A stretch of 40,010 nt of DNA from positions 1 to 40,010 of the IMG/VR virus record IMGVR_UViG_3300043621_000055, one strand, 5' to 3'. This document shows positions 3,001 through 40,010 of the stretch, in pieces. The DNA is from a virus. The translations under genes were made by a program, and so were the position numbers. Position 1 is the stretch's first letter, and each line of letters opens with the position of its first letter. The notes under the pieces are model-generated. The model was not told the origin of the DNA and did not search any database. It saw nothing but the letters and a program-made list of their open reading frames with translations.

Positions 3001-3619
3001 CTGGGTCGGGGGCGAAGTGCGCCACCTCATCCACGGTCAGATAGGCCGGGTCGCCGTTACCCAGCCCGCCCTCGTGGTAGGCGTAGCCAACCTTCCGCCA
3101 CCCCACCTGCGACGAACCCATCATCCGGGCCTCGAGGATGATCTCCACCCAGTCCGGGCGCAGAACCACCAGCTCGTCGTCGACGCGGACGATGTACGCG
3201 TTCCCACCGAGGTCGGCGAACAGCAGGGCCCGGGCCATCAGCGACGCCGTCGACCCACCCAGCCACGGAGTCCTCAACAAATCGAGGGACGGGTCGTCGT
3301 ACAGCTTGTTGAACTGCCCGTCCTCACGCTTCTGGAACAGCATCGCGGCCTGGGAGAAGACCTCAACCCGCTTCCACTCCACCGCAGCCACAGGCCCGTC
3401 GCGGTAGAACAACCCCTGAACGTAGCCCTCGAAACTGTTAGCGATCGGCTCCGCAGCTTTCTTGCCCTGCGTGTACGTCACCCCGGTGACGGACTGCAGG
3501 TTGCCCCAGTTCTGCGTCATCCGGGCAAACAGGTCCGTCAACGAATACCGGGAAATCTCCTCAGCCGCCTGAATGACAGGCACGTTGCGACCACGCCACG
3601 GGACCAGTTCGGAGGTCAC
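1..3619 (-). CDS. Phage portal protein with long SAP-like extension (open at left edge)
   Basis: Forms the dodecameric DNA-entry vertex of the head. I chose GTG 3619, preceded by a GAGGGGG Shine-Dalgarno and 10 bases after the TerL stop. Residues 1 to about 440 read as an HK97-type portal (for example RTPWLGGSTASLMARALL and LASYRGMSWLTPIVREVMADKLAM). There is no stop codon on to base 1, so at least 1206 codons are present against the usual 400-500. The extension has a Lys/Ala/Pro-rich linker and three SAP/Rho-N-like segments near residues 528-560, 680-726 and 917-965. The last two share the pattern G-L/M-T-x2-DL-K/R ... VE-x-TVG-x-RL-N/D-S-x2-IR. If the window is circular, the frame continues into the protease at 40010. 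I saw no clear MuF domain. Portal identity is confident; the role of the extension is unknown. Confidence 0.85.
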   Translation of the reverse strand, partial: MTSELVPWRGRNVPVIQAAEEISRYSLTDLFARMTQNWGNLQSVTGVTYTQGKKAAEPIANSFEGYVQGLFYRDGPVAAVEWKRVEVFSQAAMLFQKREDGQFNKLYDDPSLDLLRTPWLGGSTASLMARALLFADLGGNAYIVRVDDELVVLRPDWVEIILEARMMGSSQVGWRKVGYAYHEGGLGNGDPAYLTVDEVAHFAPDPDPLASYRGMSWLTPIVREVMADKLAMDHKQAFFENSASPNLAVSLPKELTAQQFKDFVDLMDSKHSGVQNAGKTLYTGGGADVTVIGANMQQMDFAAVQGKGETRIANAGRVPAVVVGFSEGMQGSSLNAGNYQAAKRSFADTTCQYLWAAWCPALSVLFPPPNVGDRLWYNPRAISYLNEDAKDVAEIQQTQASTMSSLITSGYKPDSAVAFVVSDDPTKLVHSGLTSVQLLPPGARDTDGDGSVDETAADDEAESDYQAQLQAARSWLDLADSIARARYNIRNPEGSVGGGRFRKLSAVIIQALEGWMNGEGENDPLESFEQPQLREAAKQLGLVKDRERVSKPELKKRLLAKATADVHAQKHGDAPDKPKETKPSTTVTASPGDWRLAPTHSDGEGADDRSTAVAELLNAGKIDAAEASDILTGKKPLPAKPKAAAKVAGVRAPKAKRPPADVVADLKASKTRDEAHAHLDGMTVADLKQVAKELDYPTAGTTKDQLKTRLVEHTVGFRLNSAAIRDGARPGSWSSDIGHAPSSPAVAKAKAARTPAGPNVKTKAGRNAYLADLIDEELAKDNPALDDTIGGIAASPREILTGMRDRLRAGDATTDFDHAYDFVHAHMSIRYGQGGGNKEADAIGKPITDAFNRIAEKYRELVPAKPMRPRRPEPTGHVPKPQAIPERAKVELSPAARSVLDSLSGQRRPPSREQAAEMVKGLTTPDLRAIGKDLSIPGAGSMSLVKLRKEIVEATVGRRLDSISIRGFDEFEAPMTPNAVVLSAGGFDAPKAQQLDLARIHAGAASDVEENAAKGASVKALNHRLQARLKALKIERVGDRDVEVENLIRDSYTRLRARPRPDGPYRGMLAPGGEYVSLADLRDDIGGKATRAELDAALARLYQGHSDGAYLAPEEAQKFLTPRDRAAQMRFGGGAVDSVSFDTPSPGQRDAPPTYVWHRPGGDVKLTQSAPGESLGGSRTSPTAKRLRDQADELERIADTYEPGSP

Positions 3620-3629
3620 ACGAACCCCC

Positions 3630-5174
3630 TCAACGCCATGCCACAAGTGCTTCAACGGATACCGGCTGGTTGGTCATGAAGCCCCACAGGGCGTTGGAAC
3701 ACCCGATAGCCGGGGTGATGTCTACGGTTGCCACGTACTGGTCCCACGCCCACGAGTTCGCCAGCTTCCGCTTCACCGCCCCCGCAACAGCGGCGGTGAG
3801 GTCGGCTTGGCCGGTGTGCTTCACCACGCGCGGGTCGCGGCCCATTTCGTTGGTGTCCGGGTCGAGAGACGGCCGGCCGGCGATGCCGTCGTAGAACGCG
3901 CCCGCCGCGGCGGCGACGTCCCGGGTGGAGATGGGCGTCAGGTCAATCCCCGCCTCGACGGCCTCGAGGGCGAGCGACGAAGCCGGCCCGGTCTGGTCGA
4001 TCACGACCGCGACGGGCGAGTACTTCGCGATCAGGTCCTTGAGGCGGGCAATTACCCAGCCGGTGTGCTGTCGGCGGTCTGCGATCTCGACCTGGATGTT
4101 GCCGTCCGGCCGGCGACCAGCGATGCAGATGGTGGCGAACTGGCGGTCTGACGACAGGACGACGGAAACCGCGATCGGGTCGGGTCGGACACCCTCCGGG
4201 ACCGCAGCGTCCCGCCAGTCGTCCCTCGGGATGACCAGGTAACTTTCGTTGCCCTTGGGTGGCCAGATGCCCAGCCGTTCCGTTCCGAACTTCTCCCGGC
4301 CGAGGGCCGCCAACTCGCTGGTCACGTACTCCTCGGAGATGCGAATACCGAGGGCCGGGTTGCAGTCGTACCAGAGGTCGACGTCGTTGACGTCCGCTCC
4401 GAGCGGCGCGGACCAGTCGTGATAGGCCATCCGGCCGGGATTGCCGGACTCGACCGCCTCGAGGGCGCGTTGGTGGACGTCCGAGAGCACCGTCTCGTCG
4501 TCGGCGGCCGTTTCGGCGTCCGGCACCGTAGAGAACATGTTCACCTGCGGGTTGGGCTGCGCCGACAGGGTCGGGAGCATCGCCGCGAGGTGCGTCCTCG
4601 TGAGTGCGTAAGCCTCATCCAGGATGATCCGTTGCCCACTGAACCCTCGAGCGGAGCCCTTGGACCGGGCGACGAACCTCAGGCGGGCTCCGGATTCGAG
4701 CGTGATCTGTTGTTCGCCGTTGGCTTCCCGGATTCCGCCGCCGCGCAGCCCGACCTTAAGGAGCCGGGACAGGTCGTCGCAGCCCTGAATCAGGTCCCGG
4801 ATGCGGAAGAACGCCTCCTGCGCCGTTTTGTACTCGTGCGCCGAGTGGAGGATCAGTCGCTCGCCCAGCAGGAACAGGCCGGCCAGCTCGACGGCCTCGA
4901 TGATGCCGCCCTTACCGTTCTGGCGCTGCGTGATGGTGCACGTCTCGAACGACGCCCACAAACCGTCATCCCGGACCCCGAAAATGTCCCGCACGACCAT
5001 CTGCTGCCACGGGTCAAGGATCAAACCCGCCGCGGCGGCCAGGTCGATGGCCTCATCGCCGAACGACGAGCCATACGCCGGCACGCTACGAAGCCGAGCC
5101 TCCTGCCGCCCGATGAGAGCGTCGCTCCGCCAGCTCGTCCTGACGCTTTGTGGCGGCTGCGCGAGCACGGTCAA
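3630..5174 (-). CDS. terL: Terminase large subunit
   Basis: ATPase-nuclease that packages DNA into the prohead. The N-terminal ATPase carries a Walker-A-like RQNGKGG near residues 84-90 and a Walker B ILDEA near residues 184-188. The C-terminal half has acidic nuclease-type segments such as AVVIDQTGPASS. The ORF is open to a GTG at 5255. I prefer TTG 5174 because AAGGAG lies 7 bases upstream and because the family usually begins with the LxGRQxxRLRSVP segment seen here; GTG 5168 and GTG 5084 are alternatives. With the TTG start it has 514 aa, normal for the family, and overlaps the end of TerS. The portal follows 10 bases after its stop. The function is secure; the start is not. Confidence 0.93.
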   Translation of the reverse strand: MTVLAQPPQSVRTSWRSDALIGRQEARLRSVPAYGSSFGDEAIDLAAAAGLILDPWQQMVVRDIFGVRDDGLWASFETCTITQRQNGKGGIIEAVELAGLFLLGERLILHSAHEYKTAQEAFFRIRDLIQGCDDLSRLLKVGLRGGGIREANGEQQITLESGARLRFVARSKGSARGFSGQRIILDEAYALTRTHLAAMLPTLSAQPNPQVNMFSTVPDAETAADDETVLSDVHQRALEAVESGNPGRMAYHDWSAPLGADVNDVDLWYDCNPALGIRISEEYVTSELAALGREKFGTERLGIWPPKGNESYLVIPRDDWRDAAVPEGVRPDPIAVSVVLSSDRQFATICIAGRRPDGNIQVEIADRRQHTGWVIARLKDLIAKYSPVAVVIDQTGPASSLALEAVEAGIDLTPISTRDVAAAAGAFYDGIAGRPSLDPDTNEMGRDPRVVKHTGQADLTAAVAGAVKRKLANSWAWDQYVATVDITPAIGCSNALWGFMTNQPVSVEALVAWR

Positions 5175-10202: not shown

Positions 10203-10934
10203 TCAGCTCTCCGTTCTGGACAGGGCGGCGATCAACTGCTCGCCGATGTGTTGGGCGACCTGGGGGACTACGGCGTTTCCGAGGGCCCTAACTCGGTCCA
10301 GCCTGCTGGGAACCCCATAAGCCACTCGACCCACTCGGGGTTCGTTGGCCCACCAAGCGCCTCCGGAAGCGATGGCGTGCCGCGGCGGTCCACTCGGGCT
10401 GCCGCCTTCGCTGGGTCGTTGATCCCCCCACGGGCACCGTCCTTCGCCACCGGAGTGGGCCACGATGAACACCCGCTCGCGTGGGTGTGGGGCGCCCATC
10501 GAACAAGCTGAGATGAATCCGGGGCGGGCTCGGTATCCAAGCCGAGCGAGGTCGCCGAGAACATCGGCGAGGCCCAGTTGGAGCAGACCGGGCACGTTCT
10601 CCGCGATAACCCAGACGGGTCGGAGGGCGGCGATGACGTCGGCCATTGCCGGCCAGAGCCAGCGGTGGTCGGCTTGCGCCAGGCGGCGACCCGTCTGGCT
10701 GACCGGCTGACACGGGAATCCTCCGCAGATGACATCAACGGGAGGGCGGGGCTCTCCCAGCCACCAGTTGGCCGCGGTGCGGACGTCGTCATGCCTCGGT
10801 ACCTCCGGCCAGTGTTTGGCCAGCACCTGCTGGCAGAAGGGATCGATCTCGACCTGGCCGACGACGGTCATGCCGGCGCGTTCCAAGCCCAATTCGAGGC
10901 CTCCGATGCCGGAGAACAGGCTTAAAACATTCAT
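10203..10934 (-). CDS. DNA (cytosine-5-)-methyltransferase
   Basis: Transfers a methyl group from SAM to C5 of cytosine in a specific DNA site. Motifs in order: FSGIGGLELGLE (motif I, near residue 7), GGFPCQPVSQTG with catalytic Cys75 (motif IV), AENV near 111-114 (motif VI), PHPRERVFIVA near 149-159 (motif VIII), and ALGNAVVPQVA (motif X). At 243 aa it is short, so the target-recognition region between motifs VIII and X is small. No restriction endonuclease is visible beside it, so it is an orphan, probably protecting phage DNA against host restriction or marking a replication site. Ends four bases before the start of the next gene. Confidence 0.93.
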   Translation of the reverse strand: MNVLSLFSGIGGLELGLERAGMTVVGQVEIDPFCQQVLAKHWPEVPRHDDVRTAANWWLGEPRPPVDVICGGFPCQPVSQTGRRLAQADHRWLWPAMADVIAALRPVWVIAENVPGLLQLGLADVLGDLARLGYRARPGFISACSMGAPHPRERVFIVAHSGGEGRCPWGDQRPSEGGSPSGPPRHAIASGGAWWANEPRVGRVAYGVPSRLDRVRALGNAVVPQVAQHIGEQLIAALSRTES

Positions 10935-18644: not shown

Positions 18645-18756
18645 ATGTCCGACGACCTGATCCGCGCCCGGTTCTCCCGCTTCGTCGACCGGGCACTCAC
18701 CTCGGCCCGGGCGCGGGGGATGACCGACAAGGACATCCATGCGGCCACCGGGACAC
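18645..18756 (+). pseudogene. N-terminal fragment of immunity repressor
   Basis: ATG 18645 opens SDDLIRARFSRFVDRALTSA followed by RARGMTDKDIHAATG. This is the N-terminal helix and first HTH helix of a repressor type common in actinomycete phages. After about 37 codons the recognisable sequence stops and the DNA continues as integrase coding sequence in another frame. The HTH is incomplete, so no functional repressor can be made. Confidence 0.55.
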
Positions 18757-19050
18757 GGTGGGCCGATCGACCCGCGCCGGGACTGGGGCGAATGGAAGGA
18801 CCTGCTCAAGGCGGCGGGGGTGCGGGATGCGCGGGTGCACGACGCCCGCCACTCGGCGGCGACCGCGATGCTCGCCATGGGGATGGACATGCGGGAGGTC
18901 ATGGAATGGCTGGGTCACAGCCAGATCTCGGTGACGTCGATCTACACCCACATCCCCGACGACGTGATGCGGGAGCGAGCCGCGCAGATGGACGTGGTGC
19001 ATCGACTGCAACCGGATGGTGCAACCAGGTCAACCCGTCGATCAAGCTGA
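18749..19050 (+). pseudogene. C-terminal fragment of tyrosine integrase
   Basis: The frame reads GPIDPRRDWGEWKDLLKAAG, then VHDARHSAATAMLAMGMDMREVMEWLGHSQISVTSIYTHIPDDVMRERAA. It keeps the catalytic HxxR-type box (HDARH), the GHS box and the Tyr nucleophile in SIYTHI. The N-terminal arm-binding and core-binding domains and the first catalytic Arg box are absent. A stop precedes the fragment in frame at 18721. It runs into the attP-like site, the usual place of an int 3' end. Clearly a remnant. Confidence 0.85.
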
Positions 19051-30512: not shown

Positions 30513-30977
30513 TCACCTCACGACGTTGTCGGCCGCCTTGCCGGCGGCCTTCTCGATGGCCCGCACGATCAGCGGCTCTGCCCTGTGGAGCCCGTCGGCG
30601 ACGAGGTCCCGTTGAACGCCCCGGGTCTGGTCCCTCCACACGTTCCGGTTACCGAACACCGGGTGACGCAGGACGCCCCGCATGTCGATGCCGGGCAGCT
30701 GCCGGCGGTCCTTCGCCCCGTCCGCCCACACCTTGCCCGTCATGCCCTTACCGCCGGCCTTAAGCACCCACCTGAACCGCATCGCAGCGGACAGAACAGC
30801 GGCGTAACCGTTACGGCGAGGGACGTGCGTTGGGACCTCGGAGCGGATCGCCAACGACACATCCGGGGCCACCTTCTGCAGCTCCTTGTCCACCCGCACC
30901 GCAAGGTCGGCGGGGAGCTTCGCCAGTTTCACCTCGACCAGGCGCAACCCCACCTGGCCGGTAACCCGGCTAGACAT
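30513..30977 (-). CDS. HK97 gp10-like or tail-completion protein
   Basis: 154 aa from ATG 30977, overlapping the tail protein stop (TGATG). Basic throughout, with VKLAKLPADLAVRVDKELQKVAPDVSLAIRSEVPTHVPRRNGYAAVLSAAMRFRW and a C-terminal helix (AEPLIVRAIEKAAGKAADNV). The layout resembles gp10-like head-tail proteins, though these normally come before the major tail protein. Structural role likely; exact one unsure. Confidence 0.55.
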   Translation of the reverse strand: MSSRVTGQVGLRLVEVKLAKLPADLAVRVDKELQKVAPDVSLAIRSEVPTHVPRRNGYAAVLSAAMRFRWVLKAGGKGMTGKVWADGAKDRRQLPGIDMRGVLRHPVFGNRNVWRDQTRGVQRDLVADGLHRAEPLIVRAIEKAAGKAADNVVR

Positions 30978-31375
30978 CAGCCCTGCTTGATTACCGGGGT
31001 AGCGCCAGACCACGACGCGGAAACCTTCACCGGGCCGTCCACCGACGCGTCGATGTCCATGTCGACCACGACCGTGCCCCACCAGTACTGGGTCGGGGTG
31101 GCAAGGTTCGGGTACAGGTAGAACCTGCGCGCGATGCCGTCAACCGCCGCGGTGTACGTCTGCACAGACGCGTCGTCGTAGAAGCCGGCGAACGTGCCGT
31201 TGGCCTCCGGCAAACCAGAAAGGTTCACCTTCGTGGTGTCACCCATCGCGGTGACGTCGATCTTCGTGGTCTTGTGACTGATCGCCCAGTCCGCCTGGTA
31301 GGCCACCGGCTCGGCAACGCCGGCCGACGACAGACCTAGGTAGATCCGGCCATTGCGGCCCGCGATTCTGCTCAC
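30977..31375 (-). CDS. Major tail protein
   Basis: 132 aa from GTG 31375, with AAGGAG upstream. GRIYLGLSSAGVAEPVAYQADWAISHKTTKIDVTAMGDTTKVNLSGLPEANGTFAGFYDDASVQTY is the compact tail-tube fold of short actinophage tail proteins. Position before the chaperone and tape measure fits. A glycosyltransferase gene ends 12 bases upstream. Confidence 0.8.
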   Translation of the reverse strand: MSRIAGRNGRIYLGLSSAGVAEPVAYQADWAISHKTTKIDVTAMGDTTKVNLSGLPEANGTFAGFYDDASVQTYTAAVDGIARRFYLYPNLATPTQYWWGTVVVDMDIDASVDGPVKVSASWSGATPVIKQG

Positions 31376-31387
31376 CGGTGACTCTCC

Positions 31388-32410
31388 TTAACTGTCCAGC
31401 AGGCGCACGATTGCGCCCGCATGGTTGTCGAAAGTGCGATCCGCGATCGCCTCGTGCGCCTTGCGCGCCAACACGGCGCGCTCATCCGGGCGCGCCAGCC
31501 AGTACCGCAGAAGGTCCGACGCCTCGGCGGGGGACGTGAACGTGGGCAACATGTCCAGCACCTCGTCGCCCTCCCCGCGGGGGTCGCGGAGAAAGAACAG
31601 GCCGCACGCGGCCATTTCGATCTCCCTCGGTCCGAGCGCCCAACCAGCCGACAGTTCGGGCCGCTCAGCCTCACGCCGATACAGGTTGATCCCGCACCGC
31701 GCCGACCGGTACAGGGGAACGGCGTCGGCGTTCTCCAAGCACTGGTCCACGTCGGTGCCGATGAACTTCCGCAACGGAGAAGACTCCGGGGTGGCCATCC
31801 ACGTCCCGGCCAGGAGCACATCCAACCCCTCGAGGTCCATCGCCTCGAAGAACGCCACCCGCGACGGGAACCCCGTACCCACGAACGCCAGATCGCACTC
31901 AAGCCCCGGCAGCGACGGACCCGGGGAATGCACGGCCGGCCGGTAGGCGTGCGGCATGTACATCGTCGGGGCGACCGCCTGGAACCGTTCCAGGTTCGTC
32001 GGGTCGTTGATGAGGTTCAGGTCCGCGTGGGCCGCAACCTCAAGTTGCCGGTCGTCCTCGTACGGACTTTCCGTGTGCAGCACCACCACCCGGGTGCCGT
32101 TGCGTTTCACCCGGTCCAACATCTTCGGGGGCAGGAAGAACCCCGACACCACCAGCAGGACATCCGGGCGGGCCTGGTACAGGGTTGCGTACAGGCCGTT
32201 GGTGGCCATCTCGTACGCCTGGTCCCCGGTCAGGTACGTCTGGAACTCGTGATCGCCGGTCTGTTTGATCGCCGACCCGTAGAACGTCAACCGGTCGTCC
32301 AGATTGAACTCGATGACCTTCTGCCCGCACGCGCGCAAACCCTCAACCCAGCCGGTGTAAACGTCGGCCACAGAGAACGACGGCCCGGGGTGGGCGACAA
32401 CCCACCTCAC
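31388..32410 (-). CDS. CgeB-like glycosyltransferase (GT-B)
   Basis: 340 aa from GTG 32410, in a GTGA overlap. The N-terminal half (RWVVAHPGPSFSVADVYTGWVEGLRACGQKVIEFN ... ARPDVLLVVSGFFLPPKMLDRVKRNGTRVVVLHTESPYEDDRQ) and the C-terminal nucleotide-sugar part (CDLAFVGTGFPSRVAFFEAM ... RCGINLYRRE ... SAGWALGPREIEMAACGLFFLRDPRGEGDEVLDML) match the CgeB/DUF3880 glycosyltransferase layout. It lies between the tail-terminator and major tail genes, so the tail tube or head proteins are likely acceptors. Confidence 0.85.
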   Translation of the reverse strand: MRWVVAHPGPSFSVADVYTGWVEGLRACGQKVIEFNLDDRLTFYGSAIKQTGDHEFQTYLTGDQAYEMATNGLYATLYQARPDVLLVVSGFFLPPKMLDRVKRNGTRVVVLHTESPYEDDRQLEVAAHADLNLINDPTNLERFQAVAPTMYMPHAYRPAVHSPGPSLPGLECDLAFVGTGFPSRVAFFEAMDLEGLDVLLAGTWMATPESSPLRKFIGTDVDQCLENADAVPLYRSARCGINLYRREAERPELSAGWALGPREIEMAACGLFFLRDPRGEGDEVLDMLPTFTSPAEASDLLRYWLARPDERAVLARKAHEAIADRTFDNHAGAIVRLLDS

Positions 32411-32817
32411 AGGCTCACCTCAACCACAAACTCGCAGCCGTTGTACTGCACGCCGGCCCACTGCACCTCGCCGTAGTTGCGGGCTGCCGTGACCGTGGCG
32501 AAACTGACCACCCCGCCGAGGGTCCCGTCGACCGCGGCCTTGATCGAGCCGGAACCGGAGGTGTCGAGGTAGGTGGTGAGCGCGTCCTGACTGGCCCGGT
32601 CATCCCCCGCCAACACGACCACCTTGATGATGAACGTCAGGTCGTCGGATCCTCGCGCCATGGAGCTGTCGAACGTGATGAAGTCACCCGGGGAGGGGAC
32701 GACGATCGCCCACGGCGGGTCGGCGAAGTCCTTGCCGAACGCCGAGGTGCGGTTGGTCAGGGCGGTGATCGTCCTGACCCTCGTGGCGATCGCGTCGGCG
32801 ATCGCGGAAATGTCAGC
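32407..32817 (-). CDS. Head-tail joining or tail terminator protein
   Basis: 136 aa from GTG 32817. An N-terminal helix (DISAIADAIATRVRTI) is followed by a beta-rich fold (PWAIVVPSPGDFITF, DDLTFIIKVVVLAGDD, VSFATVTAARNYGEVQWAGVQYNGCEFVVEVSL). This matches the tail terminator/neck proteins that follow the connector in this gene order. Confidence 0.65.
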   Translation of the reverse strand, partial: ADISAIADAIATRVRTITALTNRTSAFGKDFADPPWAIVVPSPGDFITFDSSMARGSDDLTFIIKVVVLAGDDRASQDALTTYLDTSGSGSIKAAVDGTLGGVVSFATVTAARNYGEVQWAGVQYNGCEFVVEVSL

Positions 32818-33436
32818 CACAGAGCACCGGCTCACGCACGTACGGGCCGAGGAGCTCGGCAACCTGCGGCATAGCCTTGACCCGGATTGGCCCGAACTGA
32901 TCCATTCCCGCGAGGCCGAACTGTGCGCCGGCGAGCCGGAAGTAGCTCGACCCCAGGATCAGGCACGACTGCTTCACGTCCGCCGGAACCGCCGCCCACC
33001 CCCACGAAGCAGTCACCTGCAGCGGGGCCAGTTGGCTCGAGGTGACGCAGGGGAAGCTGTTGCTCCCGACCGCGCGGATCTTCCAGTACGGCCAGCCCGT
33101 CTCGCCATCGACGACACCGTTCAACGGCTCGAGTTGATAGTCCGCTGCCGCCCACGTCGTCTCAAACGTGCCGTCGCCGTTTGTGTCGGTCTTGATGACC
33201 AGCCCGACTGTGGTGGCGAAGTCGTCGACGAACGTGAACTTCGACGAGTCCGGGTAGAACACCCGGGCTGTCGCCGAGGAGGCGAGGTTGAACTGGCGGT
33301 GGCAGTACTTCTCAATCGACCTCGACGAAGACGTCAGCGCGTCGGTGATCCGGGAGTTGTTCGTGCTGTCCGCCGCGGCCTGGCCGATGTAGTCCTTCAA
33401 CTGATCCGACGTGGCGTAAAGATCACCCAAGGCCAT
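32813..33436 (-). CDS. Head-tail connector (adaptor) protein
   Basis: 207 aa from ATG 33436. The N-terminal MALGDLYATSDQLKDYIGQ, then ITDALTSSSRSIEKYCHRQF, is the gp6-like connector opening. The middle is a beta-rich insertion, and the end holds VPADVKQSCLILGSSYFRLAGAQFGLAG. It docks under the portal. Follows the sugar-modification cassette rather than the capsid directly. Confidence 0.8.
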   Translation of the reverse strand: MALGDLYATSDQLKDYIGQAAADSTNNSRITDALTSSSRSIEKYCHRQFNLASSATARVFYPDSSKFTFVDDFATTVGLVIKTDTNGDGTFETTWAAADYQLEPLNGVVDGETGWPYWKIRAVGSNSFPCVTSSQLAPLQVTASWGWAAVPADVKQSCLILGSSYFRLAGAQFGLAGMDQFGPIRVKAMPQVAELLGPYVREPVLCG

Positions 33437-34037
33437 GACGCCCCCACTTGGTCTGGTAGTGGTTCACGGCCTCAGCCCAGCCGGGGAGTTGGTCAATGCT
33501 GAACGAACCAGCGGTGTTGTGCCGCACCAACTGGTGCCCGTTCGTGAGGCAGAAGTTCGTGAAACCGCGGGCGAGCATCTGACGGCACGAGTCGTGGTCG
33601 TAGCCGTGGAAGCCCGGGGCCTCAAGGTCCCAGTCCACGGTCTGCGACGTGGCCAACAGGAGGCCGTCGAGAATGGAGCAGTCCCCACCTGCACCGAAGT
33701 GCAGCACCCCAGCGCGGAGGTCCACGACAGAGCCGAGTTTGTCCCCGTCCCACCACGGCATCACCGGATCCCGTGACCCGATGACCCCGACCATCCCCGC
33801 CCGGGCGCAAGCCTCAACGAGTTGGGTTCGGAGTTTGGCTGTGTCGCAGACCTGCACGTCGTGGTGGATGTAGCACCGCACCGGGTGTGACGCTTTGGCT
33901 TGGCCTTCGGCGTACGCGGCGGTGATCGACGGGGCGCCTTCGACAACAATCAGTTCGTCGTCGCCGAGGTCCAAGGTGTCGAGCAGGTTCTCTTGCAGGA
34001 CGTCTTGCCGGTGGGAGGCGACAATCCAGGAGATCAT
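33423..34037 (-). CDS. GT-A-like glycosyltransferase, divergent
   Basis: 204 aa from ATG 34037. It opens ISWIVASHRQDVLQENLLDTL, then DDELIVVEGAPSITAAYAEGQAKASHPVRCYIHHDVQV, which reads as a nucleotide-sugar-binding half with HHDV in the DxD position. GVIGSRDPVMPWWDG and HGYDHDSCRQMLARGF resemble the acceptor-side half. Fold assignment is moderate; the family sugar is unknown. Overlaps the connector gene by 14 bases. Confidence 0.7.
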   Translation of the reverse strand: MISWIVASHRQDVLQENLLDTLDLGDDELIVVEGAPSITAAYAEGQAKASHPVRCYIHHDVQVCDTAKLRTQLVEACARAGMVGVIGSRDPVMPWWDGDKLGSVVDLRAGVLHFGAGGDCSILDGLLLATSQTVDWDLEAPGFHGYDHDSCRQMLARGFTNFCLTNGHQLVRHNTAGSFSIDQLPGWAEAVNHYQTKWGRHGLG

Positions 34038-34040
34038 CGC

Positions 34041-34622
34041 TCAGCCCTTCGGGTAGTAGTCGACGGTCACCTCGGGCACGAACACCCACGTCGCCCCGCC
34101 CTCAAGCCAGGTCCTCACCAGTTCCCAGTCCACGTGGTACGGGGCGGGTACAGGCCACAGGCCGAACCGGAGGTGTGTGTCGCGGCGTTGCATGAGGATC
34201 GACGAGTCAATTAGCCCGTGGGCGGGTGGTTCCCCGCCAACTTCGTCGTTGATGCCGTGCCGGTACATCCGGGTGTACCCGAAGTCCCGGTCCGGGTTGG
34301 CGTCAAGCGCCGCGGCCAACGTCTCCACATGCTGCGGGCGGAAGGCGTTGTCGTCGTCGAGGTAGGCGATCAGGTCCCCGCTGGCCACCTCGAGGCCCCG
34401 GTTGCGGGCCCTCGCCCCGTAGTTGCACGGGTCGTCGGCGTGCTCAGCCACTTCGACGTAGACCACGTCCAGGCCGGCGAGGCGATCCCGCAGTTCCGGG
34501 TCTGGCCCGTCCGACACGACGACGTGTTCGACGGTGACGGTTTGGGCGGCGACAGACGGGATGCACCGGCCGATGAGCAGGTCGTGGCGTTGCCACGTTG
34601 GGGTGATGACGGAGAGTTTCAC
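34041..34622 (-). CDS. Glycosyltransferase family 2
   Basis: 193 aa from ATG 34622, in an ATGA overlap. It has LSVITPTWQRHDLLIGRCIPSVAAQTVTVEHVVVSDG, then NRGLEVASGDLIAYLDDDNAFRPQHVETL with the DDD metal motif, then a WELVRTWLEGG acceptor-side segment. A clear GT-A inverting enzyme of the GT2 type; shorter than most (193 aa), with no C-terminal extension. Confidence 0.9.
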   Translation of the reverse strand: MKLSVITPTWQRHDLLIGRCIPSVAAQTVTVEHVVVSDGPDPELRDRLAGLDVVYVEVAEHADDPCNYGARARNRGLEVASGDLIAYLDDDNAFRPQHVETLAAALDANPDRDFGYTRMYRHGINDEVGGEPPAHGLIDSSILMQRRDTHLRFGLWPVPAPYHVDWELVRTWLEGGATWVFVPEVTVDYYPKG

Positions 34623-35638
34623 GCCGCCACCGACGCCATCTCAGCAACCCGCTGCGCCGCGTCGAGGGCGGTGCAGATCTTCCCCGACAGCACCCACACC
34701 GTGTCCCCGTCACGCTCGACAAGGGTTGGGCGTTCGTCGGTGGCGTCCACATCGGGCAGGACCGCGCGGACGCTGAACAACGAACCGGCGTAGATGCTCA
34801 CCCCTTGCCCACCGGGCTCGATCCCGCGCAGGAACCGGCTAGCACTGGTGGTCATGTCTTCGAACCGGCTCAGCGGGGTGTGGGCCGGGCCGAGGCGGGT
34901 CAGGAGGTCTGCGTACGGGGTCGGGATGTCCGGGGCGTAGCCGACGTTCGACGCGTGCACCGAGTGGTGGACGTCGTACAGGGCGTGGCCGTGACCCATC
35001 GGGTCGAGGGAAACGAAGTCCCCGTCCACGACCACGAACGACTCACCAGCCCCGTACCTGCCGAGCTGGACGAGTGCGACCTCACACACCTCGTACCGCA
35101 GTGGCCGGAGCCACGGTTGGCCGTACGTGGCCATCACCGTCAGGTCGTAGCCCGACTGCGGGCCGGGTTCGACCCGTTGGCCGAGGTGCACGTTGACCCC
35201 GCGCTGGTGGAGTTCCGCCCGCAACTGTCGGCGTAGGGCGTTGACGTCGATGAACGCTTCCTGGACCCGCAGGCACGTGCCCCGGACTTGCGGGTGGTCG
35301 ACGAGTTCGTAGGGCAAGCCGAGACGATCGCAGAAGGCAAGGTAGTCCGCGGCCGGGACTTTGCTGTCGTCGGCGATCACGTAGTGGTGGCGCCCGCGGA
35401 GGACAGCACCCCGGAACCGGTCGGCGAACCTTGGGGCGGCGTCCCGCGCCGCTGCGGCGGTGGTGTCGCTGCGCGGGTAGTGGTAGCCGTGGTGGAGTCG
35501 CGCCTGGCACCGGGCGGTTGCCCCGGTGAGGATGTCGTTGGCCTGGTCGAACAGGTCCACCTTCGCGCCGGCGCGGGCGAGCTCAACGGCGGCGGTGGCG
35601 CCGAACACGCCCCCACCGACAACAGCGGCTTTCACCAC
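34619..35638 (-). CDS. FAD-dependent oxidoreductase (DAO-like)
   Basis: 339 aa from ATG 35638. The N-terminal Rossmann motif VVGGGVFGATAAVELARAGAKVDLFD binds FAD. It is followed by ATARCQARLHHGYHYPRSDTT, typical of D-amino-acid-oxidase-fold enzymes. Late motifs include GIEPGGQGVSIYAGS and VLSGKICTALDAAQRV. Such enzymes oxidise C-N or C-OH bonds. Here the substrate is probably a sugar or amino sugar, judged only by its glycosyltransferase neighbours. Rare inside a virion operon. Confidence 0.85.
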   Translation of the reverse strand: MVKAAVVGGGVFGATAAVELARAGAKVDLFDQANDILTGATARCQARLHHGYHYPRSDTTAAAARDAAPRFADRFRGAVLRGRHHYVIADDSKVPAADYLAFCDRLGLPYELVDHPQVRGTCLRVQEAFIDVNALRRQLRAELHQRGVNVHLGQRVEPGPQSGYDLTVMATYGQPWLRPLRYEVCEVALVQLGRYGAGESFVVVDGDFVSLDPMGHGHALYDVHHSVHASNVGYAPDIPTPYADLLTRLGPAHTPLSRFEDMTTSASRFLRGIEPGGQGVSIYAGSLFSVRAVLPDVDATDERPTLVERDGDTVWVLSGKICTALDAAQRVAEMASVAA

Positions 35639-36168
35639 TCACCGGGCCCGTAAACGGCGAGGGTGTCCACCAGTCGCGGTGGGACCTTCCACGCGTCGAG
35701 GGCCTGCCGCACGCCGGGGCAGGTGGCTTCGTCGTAGTCGTGTACGGCCAGCGTCCCAGTCGGTTTGAGGAGCTTCCGCGCCCACTCAACGTCATGGGCG
35801 ACAGCGGAGGCTTCGTGGTCGCCGTCGATCCACACGAGCCCGAACTTCTGACCCAACGCCACCAATGTGGGCATGATTTGCCGCGAGTCGGCGATCCGGA
35901 TCTCAACCTTGTCGGACACGTTGTAGTCGTCGACGTTCGAGGCCATTATTCCGAGCGAGTTCAACCACTGGTGCGGGTCGACCGCGACCACCCGGGCGCC
36001 GGCGAGGGCCATGGAGATTGCCGAGTAGCCGAAGGCTGAGCCGACCTCGAGGACCGTCTTCCCCTTCTTCGCCAACCGCCGGAGTTCGTCCGTCTCGGCC
36101 TGGGTCAGGGAGGTGCTGATGGTTGGCCCGTCACCGGGGGCGACGTCGCGCCACGCGAGGCGGATCAC
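35632..36168 (-). CDS. Class I SAM-dependent methyltransferase
   Basis: 178 aa from ATG 36168. Motif I TVLEVGSAFGYSAISMALAGARVVAVDPH, then VEIRIADSRQIMP, LVWIDGDHEASAVAHDVEWARKLLKPTGTLAVHDYDE. This is the Methyltransf_24-like O-methyltransferase pattern with an Asp-rich metal site. Probably methylates the sugar added by the adjacent transferases. Overlaps both neighbours. Confidence 0.88.
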   Translation of the reverse strand: MIRLAWRDVAPGDGPTISTSLTQAETDELRRLAKKGKTVLEVGSAFGYSAISMALAGARVVAVDPHQWLNSLGIMASNVDDYNVSDKVEIRIADSRQIMPTLVALGQKFGLVWIDGDHEASAVAHDVEWARKLLKPTGTLAVHDYDEATCPGVRQALDAWKVPPRLVDTLAVYGPGEW

Positions 36169-36821
36169 AGCTGGAACTCCCGCATCCGCTCAGCGAACCG
36201 GGACTTGTCCAGGTCGGCGAACGACCAACCCAGCCGGTACGTCGAGTCGACCTCGGCCTTACCCACCGCCGGGTGGAGGTGCTCCACCACCGCGTCCTTC
36301 GCGACGGCGAACGTTCCCCGCTGCTTAGCCACGGTCACGATCTCGTCGTCGACGAACATGTGCCGGTAGCCCTCGTGGCACACCACTCCGGGCCCGTCCC
36401 ACGACGCGCCCTGCTCCGCGATGTACTGCCGCGAGATCAGGAGGTGGGGGGCGTGGGTGCCCTGCTGGGTGCGGGGATTGGCGAGGTCGTTAACCCCAAC
36501 CACCTGCGCGCCGGTCTCCTCAGAGACGCGGATCGCTTCGTCCGCCCAGCCGGGGTGGAACACCACATCGTCACCGACAAGGAACACCCAAGCCTCATCG
36601 GTGAGGTTGTAGGCGTAGTTCACCTTCTCCGCGAACGTTGTCAGCCGGGTAAGGCGCACGTTCGCCTTGGCCTGCAACCACGTCGCCCACGTCAGGTTGT
36701 CCGCCTCGTTCACCACCGCGTACACGGTGGCCCGGTCGGTGGTTTCCCGCAGCGACGCCATGAACGGCTCAGCGCGTTGCGGCCGGTTCAACACCGGCAC
36801 CACCACGGCGATGTCACTCAC
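36165..36821 (-). CDS. Glycosyltransferase family 2-like
   Basis: 218 aa from GTG 36821, overlapping the previous gene by 8 bases. It has IAVVVPVLNRPQRAEPFMASL, then ATVYAVVNEADN, KVNYAYNLTDEAWVFLVGDDVVFHPGW with GDDVVF as the DxD motif, then a GYRHMFVDDEIVTVAKQRG end. A GT-A enzyme. Its end overlaps the methyltransferase start. Confidence 0.88.
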   Translation of the reverse strand: MSDIAVVVPVLNRPQRAEPFMASLRETTDRATVYAVVNEADNLTWATWLQAKANVRLTRLTTFAEKVNYAYNLTDEAWVFLVGDDVVFHPGWADEAIRVSEETGAQVVGVNDLANPRTQQGTHAPHLLISRQYIAEQGASWDGPGVVCHEGYRHMFVDDEIVTVAKQRGTFAVAKDAVVEHLHPAVGKAEVDSTYRLGWSFADLDKSRFAERMREFQL

Positions 36822-37566
36822 CAGCAGCCGCCAAAGCCTGAGCCTCTTCCAACGCCCGCTGGCCGGCGAAGTGCTCAAAGTTCAGCTCGAACTGCTTGAT
36901 GTGACCCAACTGCACGGCGGTGTTCACGAACACCGGCAAACCTGCCCGGCCCGCGCGGAGGCAGAACGTGATGTCCTCACCCATCGCCCGGCCGTAAAAA
37001 TCCGTCTCCTGGAACCACGGGAACGCCTGCGAAAACCCGACCTGCGGCTTGTCAGGGTGCTTGAAGTCGCGGATCTTCCGAAGCGCGTTGCGGTGAATCA
37101 ACAGGCAAGCCGCACCAGTCCCGAACACCTGGAACATGCTGTCCGGCTTCCACTCGTGGTACCGCACAAACTCCGGGCAGTCCTCCGACCCCGTCACGTC
37201 ATACAAGGTGGGGAAGAGTTTGCCGTCGTTGTCCATCGAGAAGCACAACCCGCCGACGATCGGCGCCGTCTCCGGGTCGGCGTGCTCCAACAGGGCCTCG
37301 ATGAGGTCCGGGTTGAACGTCATGTCCGTGTCCAACATCAGCAGCCACGGGGCCGTGTGGTTTGTGAGGAACTCGAAGCAGATCGTGTTCCGGGCGGACG
37401 AAATGTTCGCCGACGACACCTGCGAAATGACCCCACCACGGCCCGGCTCCAACCGGTTGTGGTTGTCCCGGTCGAAGTAGATCAGGTTCAGAACGGACTC
37501 CATGAAGTTGCCGTTCACCAACGAGGGGCGCACCCACGAAACGACCACGCCGTCTTGCTCAGTCAT
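36814..37566 (-). CDS. Glycosyltransferase family 2-like, capsid-adjacent
   Basis: 250 aa from ATG 37566, with GGAGGAAA upstream. It has SSARNTICFEFLTNHTAPWLLMLDTDMTFNPDLIEALLEHA with the DTD metal motif, then MFQVFGTGAACLLIHRNALRKI, and GRAMGEDITFCLRAGRAGLPVFVNTAVQLGHIKQF, the GED acceptor-side motif. I recognise this type from actinophages with glycosylated virions. First gene after the capsid. Confidence 0.9.
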   Translation of the reverse strand: MTEQDGVVVSWVRPSLVNGNFMESVLNLIYFDRDNHNRLEPGRGGVISQVSSANISSARNTICFEFLTNHTAPWLLMLDTDMTFNPDLIEALLEHADPETAPIVGGLCFSMDNDGKLFPTLYDVTGSEDCPEFVRYHEWKPDSMFQVFGTGAACLLIHRNALRKIRDFKHPDKPQVGFSQAFPWFQETDFYGRAMGEDITFCLRAGRAGLPVFVNTAVQLGHIKQFELNFEHFAGQRALEEAQALAAAGE

Positions 37567-37654: not shown

Positions 37655-39097
37655 TTAGCCGAGCGCGGTGAAGCCCGGCGTGGTGTGGAGCTGGAGCATG
37701 CGGAAGGCGTCGACGTCGACTACATCCGCGCCCACGCGCCAGAACGCAAACCACCCTGCCTGACCAGTGGGACGGCCGGCGTTGGTGGACTTGACCATCG
37801 GCTCGTAGAGGACCGACATGCCCACCCGGTCGACGATGTAGTACTTCTTGAAGTCGCCGGCGAGCAGGATGTTCGCGGACGTGGTGATGACGGCGCCCAT
37901 GGTGGAGCACTCGTACTGGGGTTGGCCGAGCAGTTCCGACGGGACACCCATGCCGAGGTTGGCCCAGAACGCCGACGAACCCGAGGTGTCGAATTGGCGG
38001 ATCTTCGAGTAGATCGTCTTGTTGGCGATCCACGACGCCTGCGACGCGTCACGGGGGCGGAGTGCGTCCGCGACCCGGTACACGTCGCCGACCACGAACG
38101 ACGTGATCGTCGCCGAAGAAACCAGCGAAGCGGTGACCGCGGCGACGGCGGCGACGATGCCGCGGGGAACGCTCGCACCGGTGTTGCCGGTGGCGAACGC
38201 CGCCTCCTCGAGACGCGTCTTCGCGTCGGCGAGCAGCGGGCCAAGTTCCGAAGCGAAGCCGGAGTCGGCGAGCATTTCGTACGAACCGAACACCCACGCC
38301 GCGGCCTTGCGCGGGGTGATGGTCGGCTGGACGAAGGTCGGGGACGCGTCTGCGGCCTGCACACCTTCACCGAGCCACTCAGCAGTCACACCCGCTGAGG
38401 TGACACCGTTCCAGTCGTCCGTCGCGATGGTCTTCGTGGTGGCGATGGACCGGATTGGCCCCTGGATACCCGAGTTGGTCAGGATGATCGTCGGGTCGAG
38501 GGTCATGGGGACCATGACGCCACCGTTGCCGGCGGTGAGGGACATGGCGGTACGCATGACCTCGCCGGTGACCTGGCCGTAGGAGGCCACGTACTCCTGG
38601 AACTCCTCGTGGTACTTCGCGGAGCCGGTCAGGAGGATGTGTCGGGCGATCAGCGGGGCGTGCTTGTTGCCGAGCTCGACGAGTTCGGTGGCGCGCTGCT
38701 TGCCGTTGTCGGTCATGTGCTCCGGTGCGGCCTCGATGGCGTTCCGGGCGCGAGACACCATCTCCTCCGGCTCGATGCCGCCGCGGCGGATCGAGTCGAG
38801 GCCGTCGTACGGGTCGGCCCGGCGCAGAACCTCGGGTCCGCGGCGGCTGCGGACAACCGCACCGTCGCCGCCCTCGGTCGTGCCGGTGTTGAGTGCGAGG
38901 GAACGGACGACCTCGCGGTCCTTGTCCTTGGCGAGGGCCGCGTCATACGCGGGCTTCAGGGCCTTGATCTCCGCGAGGATCTCGTCCGAGCGGGTCAGCT
39001 CGTCCTCGTCCGCGTCTTCGATCGCGTCGAGCTCCAACATCTCGGACCGGAGAACTTCGATCTCCTTGCCGAGCTGAGCAGCGGTCTTGCGTGCCAC
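37655..39097 (-). CDS. HK97-fold major capsid protein
   Basis: 480 aa from GTG 39097, overlapping the protease stop. The first about 140 residues form a charged coiled-coil delta/scaffold domain (AAQLGKEIEVLRSEMLELDAIEDADEDELTRSDEILAEI), normally removed by the protease. The mature fold follows: GGVMVPMTLDPTIILTNSG, AAAWVFGSYEMLADSGFASELGPLLADAKTRLEEAAFATG, and the C-terminal KKYYIVDRVGMSVLYEPMVKSTNAG. A likely target of the neighbouring glycosyltransferases. Confidence 0.95.
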   Translation of the reverse strand: MARKTAAQLGKEIEVLRSEMLELDAIEDADEDELTRSDEILAEIKALKPAYDAALAKDKDREVVRSLALNTGTTEGGDGAVVRSRRGPEVLRRADPYDGLDSIRRGGIEPEEMVSRARNAIEAAPEHMTDNGKQRATELVELGNKHAPLIARHILLTGSAKYHEEFQEYVASYGQVTGEVMRTAMSLTAGNGGVMVPMTLDPTIILTNSGIQGPIRSIATTKTIATDDWNGVTSAGVTAEWLGEGVQAADASPTFVQPTITPRKAAAWVFGSYEMLADSGFASELGPLLADAKTRLEEAAFATGNTGASVPRGIVAAVAAVTASLVSSATITSFVVGDVYRVADALRPRDASQASWIANKTIYSKIRQFDTSGSSAFWANLGMGVPSELLGQPQYECSTMGAVITTSANILLAGDFKKYYIVDRVGMSVLYEPMVKSTNAGRPTGQAGWFAFWRVGADVVDVDAFRMLQLHTTPGFTALG

Positions 39098-40010
39098 TAC
39101 AGGATTCCTTCCAGGATGGCTTCCGCGCGCATACGGTTGCGGCGGATTGACAACCGACTGGAGTGGGCGTCGTAGCCCGGCTCGTCGGCGCCGGCTTCCG
39201 GGTCGGAAGTGGCGTACGTCTCCGGCTCCTCATCGGGAGTGGTGGACGTGCGGGCCAACTCGAGGAGGTGGTCCAGGTCGAACCCGGAAGACAGGAGCGT
39301 CGCGAGCGCACTGTTCCCGGATCGGACGGCATAGATGGCGGCGTCGCGGTACACCGCCGAAGGGGTGGGGCCGTACTCGGTGAGGCCCAGTTCGGTGCGG
39401 GTCACCGACGGCAGCGGACCACCACGGCGACGGGAAGGGGTGCCGGTCGACTTGTACACCGGGCCGCGGAACGACTGGGCGCTGATCGACCCGTTGCGGA
39501 TCGCCTCAAGCACACGGTCCGCGTCGGGGCCCTCGTTGTACCGGGACACCGTGTACAGGCCCTTGGCGTCGGCACGGACCTCGAGGGAGCGGCCGATCGG
39601 CACCGAGTACATGTCTGAGGGGGTGCCGGCCACGGTCATGCCGTGGTTGTAGAGGACCGGGAACGGGCGATCGCCGCGCTCGCGGATGGTCTTGTCGAAC
39701 GCCGACCGTGAGATGGACTCCATGTAGTGGCCGTGGGGGTCGTGGACCTCGGCCGGGGAATCCCACACAGCGGCCAAACCGATGACGGTGCGACCATCAC
39801 CGGAGCGGCTGATCTCCAGGTCGATGAGGTCGTAGGTGCCCGCCCATTCCTGGGGACCTGACCGCATGATTTCCTCCTCGTCGAGGCTGCCGTCGTCGAG
39901 GGCGGCGGAGAGGTGGGGGAACTCGGCGCGGACCAGGTCGTCGCAGTCGAGCAGGTCACCGCCGCGCTTGATGCACGGCGACAGGGCGTGGGCGGCCATG
40001 AGCTTCTTCA
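39097..40010 (-). CDS. HK97 prohead maturation protease (open at right edge)
   Basis: Cleaves the capsid delta domain. A protease-only product would start at ATG 39867 (GAGGAGG five bases upstream), giving 256 aa: DLEISRSGDGRTVIGLAAVWDSP, then FPVLYNHG with the catalytic His, and GSISAQSFRGPVYK with the catalytic Ser. The frame stays open upstream (to ATG 39999 and beyond 40010) and reads LVRAEFPHLSAALDDGS, which looks coding. If the molecule is circular, it is continuous with the portal ORF. Ends by overlapping the capsid start. Confidence 0.88.
   Translation of the reverse strand, partial: KKLMAAHALSPCIKRGGDLLDCDDLVRAEFPHLSAALDDGSLDEEEIMRSGPQEWAGTYDLIDLEISRSGDGRTVIGLAAVWDSPAEVHDPHGHYMESISRSAFDKTIRERGDRPFPVLYNHGMTVAGTPSDMYSVPIGRSLEVRADAKGLYTVSRYNEGPDADRVLEAIRNGSISAQSFRGPVYKSTGTPSRRRGGPLPSVTRTELGLTEYGPTPSAVYRDAAIYAVRSGNSALATLLSSGFDLDHLLELARTSTTPDEEPETYATSDPEAGADEPGYDAHSSRLSIRRNRMRAEAILEGIL

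What the first reader, a model, noticed from the sequence alone, without database searches (positions are those of the whole stretch)
33423..37566. Six-gene sugar-modification cassette between capsid and connector
Four GT-A-like glycosyltransferases, a SAM methyltransferase and a FAD oxidoreductase sit in one overlapping, translationally coupled block exactly between the capsid and connector genes. Phage-encoded glycosylation of capsids and tail tubes is known in some mycobacteriophages, but a set able to build, oxidise and methylate a glycan on the virion is more elaborate. The coupling implies one product, plausibly a short modified glycan on the capsid.
Basis: partly seen in the sequence, partly recalled or inferred. 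Interest (0 to 1): 0.78.

Follow-up and report, generated by a model that had tools for sequence, protein, structure and literature searches.

The report
Phage virion sugar-coating gene cassette
This uncultured actinobacterial virus carries, wedged among its capsid and tail genes, a set of enzymes that most likely build and chemically decorate sugar chains on its own particle; relatives keep the enzyme next to the capsid but swap the decorating enzymes, much as bacteria swap surface-sugar genes.

Summary
The six genes are real and annotated correctly: GT1, GT2, methyltransferase, FAD oxidoreductase, GT3, GT4, overlapping, between major capsid protein (MCP) and connector. The window is a whole 40-kb IMG/VR record from an uncultured actinophage lineage. 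GTB has no match in 50,697 GenBank phage records, but at least 580 stretches in IMG/VR match it. Synteny is strong: GTB lies within 1.3 kb upstream of the tail-tube gene in 73/76 contigs, and GT1 within 3 kb downstream of an MCP in 62/66. GT1 divergence tracks the MCP (r about 0.85-0.9); GT2-GT4 track it poorly (0.2-0.4). The middle genes are a swappable tailoring cassette: MT+FAD here; elsewhere NDP-sugar epimerase, sugar C-methyltransferase, deacetylase+dioxygenase, mutase or LicD. The window resembles one relative in capsid-GT1-GT2 and others in MT-FAD-GT3. Best explanation: phage-encoded virion glycosylation with GT1 acting on the capsid, GT2-4 extending, MT/FAD tailoring, and GTB plausibly on the tail tube. 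It is a new variant of a known kind (Corndog/Che8). Acceptors and glycan are untested.

The parts
39097..39999 (-). capsid maturation protease
   Evidence: PF04586 E=6e-11
37655..39097 (-). HK97-type major capsid protein (proposed acceptor)
   Evidence: PF05065 E=1e-37
36814..37566 (-). GT1, GT-A glycosyltransferase, proposed capsid-specific (initiating) enzyme
   Evidence: phrog_34859 E=1e-14; invariant DxD and ED in 30 homologues; downstream of MCP in 62/66 contigs; distance correlation with MCP 0.85-0.9
36165..36821 (-). GT2, GT-A glycosyltransferase (GTG start 36821 preferred)
   Evidence: PF00535 above cut-off; fused to GT1 in one frame in 17 contigs
35632..36168 (-). SAM-dependent methyltransferase
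   Evidence: PF13578 E=6e-17
34619..35638 (-). FAD oxidoreductase of the DAO superfamily
   Evidence: PF01266 E=2e-16; model matches sarcosine oxidase/DAAO/GlpO folds; cellular homologues lie in glycan clusters
34041..34622 (-). GT3, GT-A glycosyltransferase
   Evidence: PF00535 E=3e-15
33423..34037 (-). GT4, Glyco_tranf_2_5 family
   Evidence: PF13712 E=9e-16
32813..33436 (-). head-tail connector
   Evidence: phrog_442 E=4e-16
32407..32862 (-). tail terminator
   Evidence: phrog_17840 E=9e-22
31388..32410 (-).
   Evidence: PF13524 E=1e-14; within 1.3 kb upstream of tail tube in 73/76 contigs retrieved by the tail-tube protein
30977..31375 (-). major tail (tube) protein, possible second acceptor
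   Evidence: phrog_10528 E=9e-7; AlphaFold model matches monocin, 80alpha, GTA and lambda tube proteins

Best explanation
The block is a phage-encoded virion glycosylation system made of a conserved core and an exchangeable tailoring cassette. GT1 recognises the capsid protein and adds the first sugar(s). GT2, GT3 and GT4 extend the chain. The methyltransferase and the FAD enzyme methylate and oxidise a sugar (on the nucleotide sugar or on the chain), giving a strain-specific cap. GTB, read just before the tail-tube gene, most likely does the equivalent job on the tail tube. Shown: gene identities, order, synteny, cassette swapping, GT1-capsid co-inheritance. Inferred: acceptors, order of reactions, chemistry, benefit (evasion of binders, receptors or predators, or particle stability).
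For: Gene identities. GT1 retrieved on its own is within 3 kb downstream of an MCP on the same strand in 62/66 contigs. The tail-tube protein retrieved on its own has GTB within 1.3 kb upstream in 73/76. GT1 distances track MCP distances (r=0.85, n=84), more than the adjacent protease does (0.71; bootstrap difference 0.08-0.19), whereas GT2, GT3 and GT4 give 0.43, 0.16 and 0.21. The window is mosaic: L123 and L004 share MCP 67-89%, GT1 81-82% and GT2 74-77% but lack MT-FAD-GT3; L048, L059, L068 and L083 share MT 63-73%, FAD 61-65% and GT3 72-81% while MCP is 30-36%. Alternative cassettes encode sugar-specific enzymes: NDP-sugar epimerase, sugar C-methyltransferase, polysaccharide deacetylase, PhyH, RGP mutase, TylF, LicD, hexapeptide acyltransferase. 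Cellular relatives of the FAD enzyme sit in glycan clusters. No membrane segments in any of the GTs. Precedents: Corndog-cluster OMT and GTs inside the structural operon with modified capsid suspected (PMC4351075); capsid and tail-tube glycans of mycobacteriophages as cited from Freeman 2023 (PMC11600133, PMC12619734).
Against: No protein chemistry. Within MCP clades GT1 is coupled to MCP about as tightly as the protease is (0.69-0.90 vs 0.69-0.87), so linkage contributes. GTB-MTP coupling (0.59) does not exceed GTB-tail terminator coupling (0.70), so the tail-tube assignment rests on adjacency. No acceptor-site signature: an extra roughly 10-residue capsid C-tail is common in the window's GT1-positive clade but absent in many other GT1-positive capsids. 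No DNA-sugar or cell-wall assay exists. Freeman 2023 itself was not readable here.
Confidence: 0.66

Rival explanations
1. The enzymes modify the host cell envelope (superinfection exclusion or receptor change), and sit in the late operon by chance.
For: Phage GTs of the Gtr type do this (established knowledge); this possibility was proposed for GTs of freshwater actinophages (PMC10202952); cellular FAD relatives sit beside GtrA-like membrane proteins (sequence reading).
Against: No transmembrane segment in any of the proteins and no flippase/GtrA-like gene in the block; genes are embedded between capsid and tail genes and co-transmitted with them in over 60 contigs; GT1 tracks the capsid.
Confidence: 0.13
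2. The block acts on the virion, but mainly on another protein (portal, connector, minor tail or fibre), not the capsid or tail tube.
For: Connector and several optional structural genes (908-aa, Gp80 fibre-like, DUF4082) lie in the same zone in relatives.
Against: GT1 follows MCP and GTB follows MTP across otherwise different contents; connector distances correlate weakly with GT1 (0.35).
Confidence: 0.13
3. The enzymes hypermodify phage DNA with sugars.
For: Phage GTs that glycosylate DNA exist; this role was suggested for Nanopelagicales phages (PMC10202952).
Against: None of the window genes tested by profile is a base-hydroxymethylating or thymidylate-synthase-like enzyme that would make the acceptor base; only a C5 cytosine methylase is present; genes are in the late structural operon.
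Confidence: 0.04
4. A loose collection of moron genes without one joint product.
For: Gene content is highly variable between relatives.
Against: Same six-domain order in 5 other contigs; MT-FAD-GT3 travels as a unit in 7 contigs; GT1-GT2 fusions in 17; overlapping starts and stops.
Confidence: 0.04

Closest known systems
Corndog-cluster (Cluster O) mycobacteriophage OMT/GT cassette
   Same: O-methyltransferase plus several GTs inside the structural operon; proposed capsid modification (PMC4351075); reported as acting on capsid and tail tube (PMC11600133 citing Freeman 2023).
   Different: There it lies between portal and protease; no FAD enzyme in that block; none of the window families matches Firecracker gp33-gp36 by profile even at E=10, so not homologous at this sensitivity. 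No separate GT beside the tail tube in the Firecracker stretch examined.
Che8-type (Cluster F1) capsid glycosylation
   Same: Phage-encoded GTs, glycans on major capsid proteins (PMC11256854, citing Freeman 2023).
   Different: GT genes near the right genome end, away from structural genes; fewer enzymes.
Bacterial O-antigen/capsule loci with serotype-type cassette exchange
   Same: Conserved flanks with interchangeable sugar-synthesis and tailoring genes in the middle (works like).
   Different: No flippase/polymerase, no lipid carrier step, located in a phage late operon; not a member.
Freshwater Nanopelagicales actinophage glycosyltransferases (E7, F5)
   Same: Actinophages encoding GTs (PMC10202952).
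   Different: Function there assigned to DNA or cell wall; homology to this block not tested.

Membership tests
Phage-encoded virion glycosylation (Freeman 2023 type) | phage-encoded glycosyltransferases with intact catalytic motifs | tested here: met
Phage-encoded virion glycosylation (Freeman 2023 type) | covalent glycan on capsid and/or tail-tube protein | not testable with these tools
   needs mass spectrometry of virions
Phage-encoded virion glycosylation (Freeman 2023 type) | genetic linkage to virion structural genes | tested here: met
Corndog-cluster modification cassette | sequence homology of the GTs and OMT to Cluster O proteins | tested here: not met
   no profile hit to Firecracker gp33-36 at E=10
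Corndog-cluster modification cassette | position between portal and protease | tested here: not met
   lies between capsid and connector
Gtr-type host envelope conversion | membrane-embedded GtrA/GtrB/Gtr(type) proteins | tested here: not met
   no TM-like segments, max 19-residue hydropathy 1.48 or less in all GT/MT/FAD proteins
DNA glucosylation systems | modified-base synthesis gene plus DNA glycosyltransferase | tested here: not met
   no such family among window proteins tested; not every small ORF was scanned
DAO-type FAD oxidoreductase | Rossmann GxGxxG and DAO fold | tested here: met
   PF01266; Foldseek to MSOX/DAAO E=1e-15

The most novel reading that the evidence does not exclude
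A large, uncultured actinophage lineage varies the chemistry of its particle's sugar coat by exchanging whole tailoring cassettes between two fixed, acceptor-dedicated enzymes (GT1 for the capsid, GTB for the tail tube), that is, virion serotype switching analogous to bacterial O-antigen switching.
Probability: 0.35. Interest if true: 0.82.

Novelty: new variant of a known kind. Interest (0 to 1): 0.64.

Why it matters
Virion glycosylation is known in a few cultured mycobacteriophages, with unclear purpose outside animals. Here it looks like an ancient and diversifying trait of a very large uncultured phage group in soil and freshwater, where no antibodies exist. The capsid-coupled GT1 and swappable tailoring cassettes make two questions testable: which enzyme chooses the protein, and what selects for changing the sugar. 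The enzymes are also candidates for programmable protein glycosylation.

Tried and rejected
(1) DNA-level relatives in GenBank phages: none; tblastn with FAD, GTB and tail tube: none; GT1 only 23-24% remote hits. (2) Corndog/Firecracker homology: none. (3) Capsid C-terminal tail as acceptor mark: suggestive in the window clade only, not general. (4) GTB-tail tube co-evolution beyond linkage: not supported. (5) Within-clade GT1-MCP coupling is not clearly above linkage, so the claim rests on the between-clade pattern and on GT2-GT4 not following. (6) PDB sequence searches: no relative for GTB; GT1 only weakly GlfT2-like, E=0.03. (7) Corndog records AY129335/NC_004685 not held; Freeman 2023 not held. 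(8) Prophage hosts: one named, Klenkia brasiliensis, and one Actinomycetota MAG; GTB absent from 395 of 396 other-sampled Actinomycetota genomes.

Full report
What is there. The window is an entire IMG/VR virus record (40,010 b, GC 0.67). On the minus strand the late module reads: portal, protease, MCP, GT1, GT2, methyltransferase, FAD oxidoreductase, GT3, GT4, connector, tail terminator, GTB, tail tube, tape measure, minor tail. Most abut or overlap by 4-14 nt. GT1 and GT2 fall near family thresholds, but GT1 keeps the GT-A DxD and the E-D pair in all 30 aligned homologues. A seventh enzyme, GTB (PF13524, E=1e-14), overlaps the tail-terminator gene by 4 nt and ends 12 nt before the tail-tube gene. 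The tail-tube call was only weakly supported by sequence (E=9e-7), so I modelled it: the model (pLDDT 73) matches monocin, 80alpha, GTA and lambda tube proteins.

Relatives. No DNA match exists in 50,697 phage records, and tblastn with GTB, the tail tube and the FAD enzyme finds none. In bacterial genomes GTB is nearly absent: two hits in 84,980 species by pattern scan, one a Klenkia brasiliensis prophage-like region with terminase, portal, a different capsid, and a small methyltransferase-GTB-tail tube run; 1 of 396 sampled Actinomycetota genomes, Klenkia itself. So the enzyme is phage-borne.

Synteny beyond chance. Contigs fetched by GT1 alone have an MCP within 3 kb upstream on the same strand in 62 of 66. 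Contigs fetched by the tail-tube protein alone have GTB within 1.3 kb upstream in 73 of 76 (66 within 300 nt). Contigs fetched by GTB have the tail tube within 150 nt in 66 of 72. Among contigs fetched by MCP, 26 of 64 carry GT1; several of the others go straight from MCP to connector, so the glyco block is an optional insertion in this capsid family. L210 has GTB and the tail tube but no GT1, so the two sites vary separately.

Core and cassette. In 36 contigs with MCP and GTB on one locus the zone holds GT1, usually GT2, often GT3 and GT4, and a variable set. Pfam on the variable genes: type A MT+FAD (window, L002, L003, L048, L059, L068, L083); type B methyltransferase + NDP-sugar epimerase (GDP-fucose-synthase-like) + GT3; type C sugar C-methyltransferase (PF08421/PF08484) + epimerase + GT3; type D methyltransferase + polysaccharide deacetylase + PhyH dioxygenase + GT; also RGP mutase, TylF + LicD, 2OG oxygenase, hexapeptide acyltransferase, and GT-only freshwater types. 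These are sugar-nucleotide and sugar-tailoring enzymes, which fits a glycan product rather than DNA.

Mosaicism. Against L123/L004 the window shares MCP 67-89%, GT1 81-82%, GT2 74-77%, but not MT-FAD-GT3. Against L048, L059, L068 and L083 it shares MT 63-73%, FAD 61-65%, GT3 72-81%, but MCP only 30-36% and GT1 32-35%. So the tailoring unit and the capsid unit have different histories. Distance correlations: MCP-GT1 0.85 (n=84) against MCP-protease 0.71 (bootstrap difference 0.08-0.19); MCP-GT2 0.43, MCP-GT3 0.16, MCP-GT4 0.21; GT2-GT4 0.85 (n=16). GT1 belongs with the capsid; GT2-4 belong with the glycan. In 17 contigs GT1 and GT2 are one open frame, which links the two steps. Caveats: within capsid clades GT1 is no more coupled than the protease in some clades, and GTB-tail tube (0.59) is not above GTB-terminator (0.70).

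FAD enzyme. It falls in the sarcosine oxidase/DAAO/glycerol-3-phosphate oxidase superfamily. Three of 297 sampled actinobacterial genomes hold relatives with the same H-x-G-[YF]-HYPR signature; by reading the sequences, each lies next to GT2 enzymes and, variously, an epimerase, a DegT aminotransferase, a hexapeptide acyltransferase, or GtrA-like proteins. This supports a role in glycan synthesis; the substrate is unknown (a secondary alcohol or an amine are both possible for this superfamily).

Mechanism proposed. GT1 chooses the capsid and starts the chain; GT2-4 extend; MT and FAD tailor; GTB acts at the tail tube. Only the genetics is shown. The precedents are Corndog-type OMT/GT genes inside the structural operon with poor capsid peptide coverage (PMC4351075) and glycans on capsid and tail tube as cited by PMC11600133 and PMC12619734. 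The window enzymes are not detectably related to the Cluster O ones, so this is an analogous, more elaborate and modular system, not a member of that family.

Limits. Contigs are metagenomic and samples were top-ranked hits, not random. ORF calls in relatives were made by a simple codon model. Pairwise-distance correlations are not phylogenetically independent.

Noticed in passing
window 2-3655 (-): Portal gene in an unusually long open frame (1218 aa, running off the record end) with weak SAP and Rho_N domain matches after the portal domain.
   Followed up: no
window 10203-10934 (-): C5 cytosine DNA methylase (PF00145 E=2e-40), the only DNA-modification enzyme found.
   Followed up: partly
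window 18739-19050 (+): Short open frame matching only the C-terminal part of a tyrosine integrase (PF00589); the rest was not found, so possibly a remnant or frameshift.
   Followed up: no
L197: Klenkia brasiliensis DSM 44526 carries a prophage-like structural module with a small SAM methyltransferase, GTB and tail tube; a possible culturable entry point to this system.
   Followed up: partly
L002 7251-9977, L085 5967-8681: About 905-aa proteins without Pfam match between GT4 and connector in some relatives; possibly head decoration or fibre proteins.
   Followed up: no
L325, L326, L327: Uncharacterised actinobacterial glycan clusters with a DAO-type oxidoreductase bearing a H-x-G-[YF]-HYPR motif.
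   Followed up: partly
window 37655-37700 (-): MCPs of the window's clade have a Thr/Ala-rich C-terminal extension of about 10 residues that GT1-lacking capsids do not have, but many other GT1-bearing capsids lack it too.
   Followed up: partly
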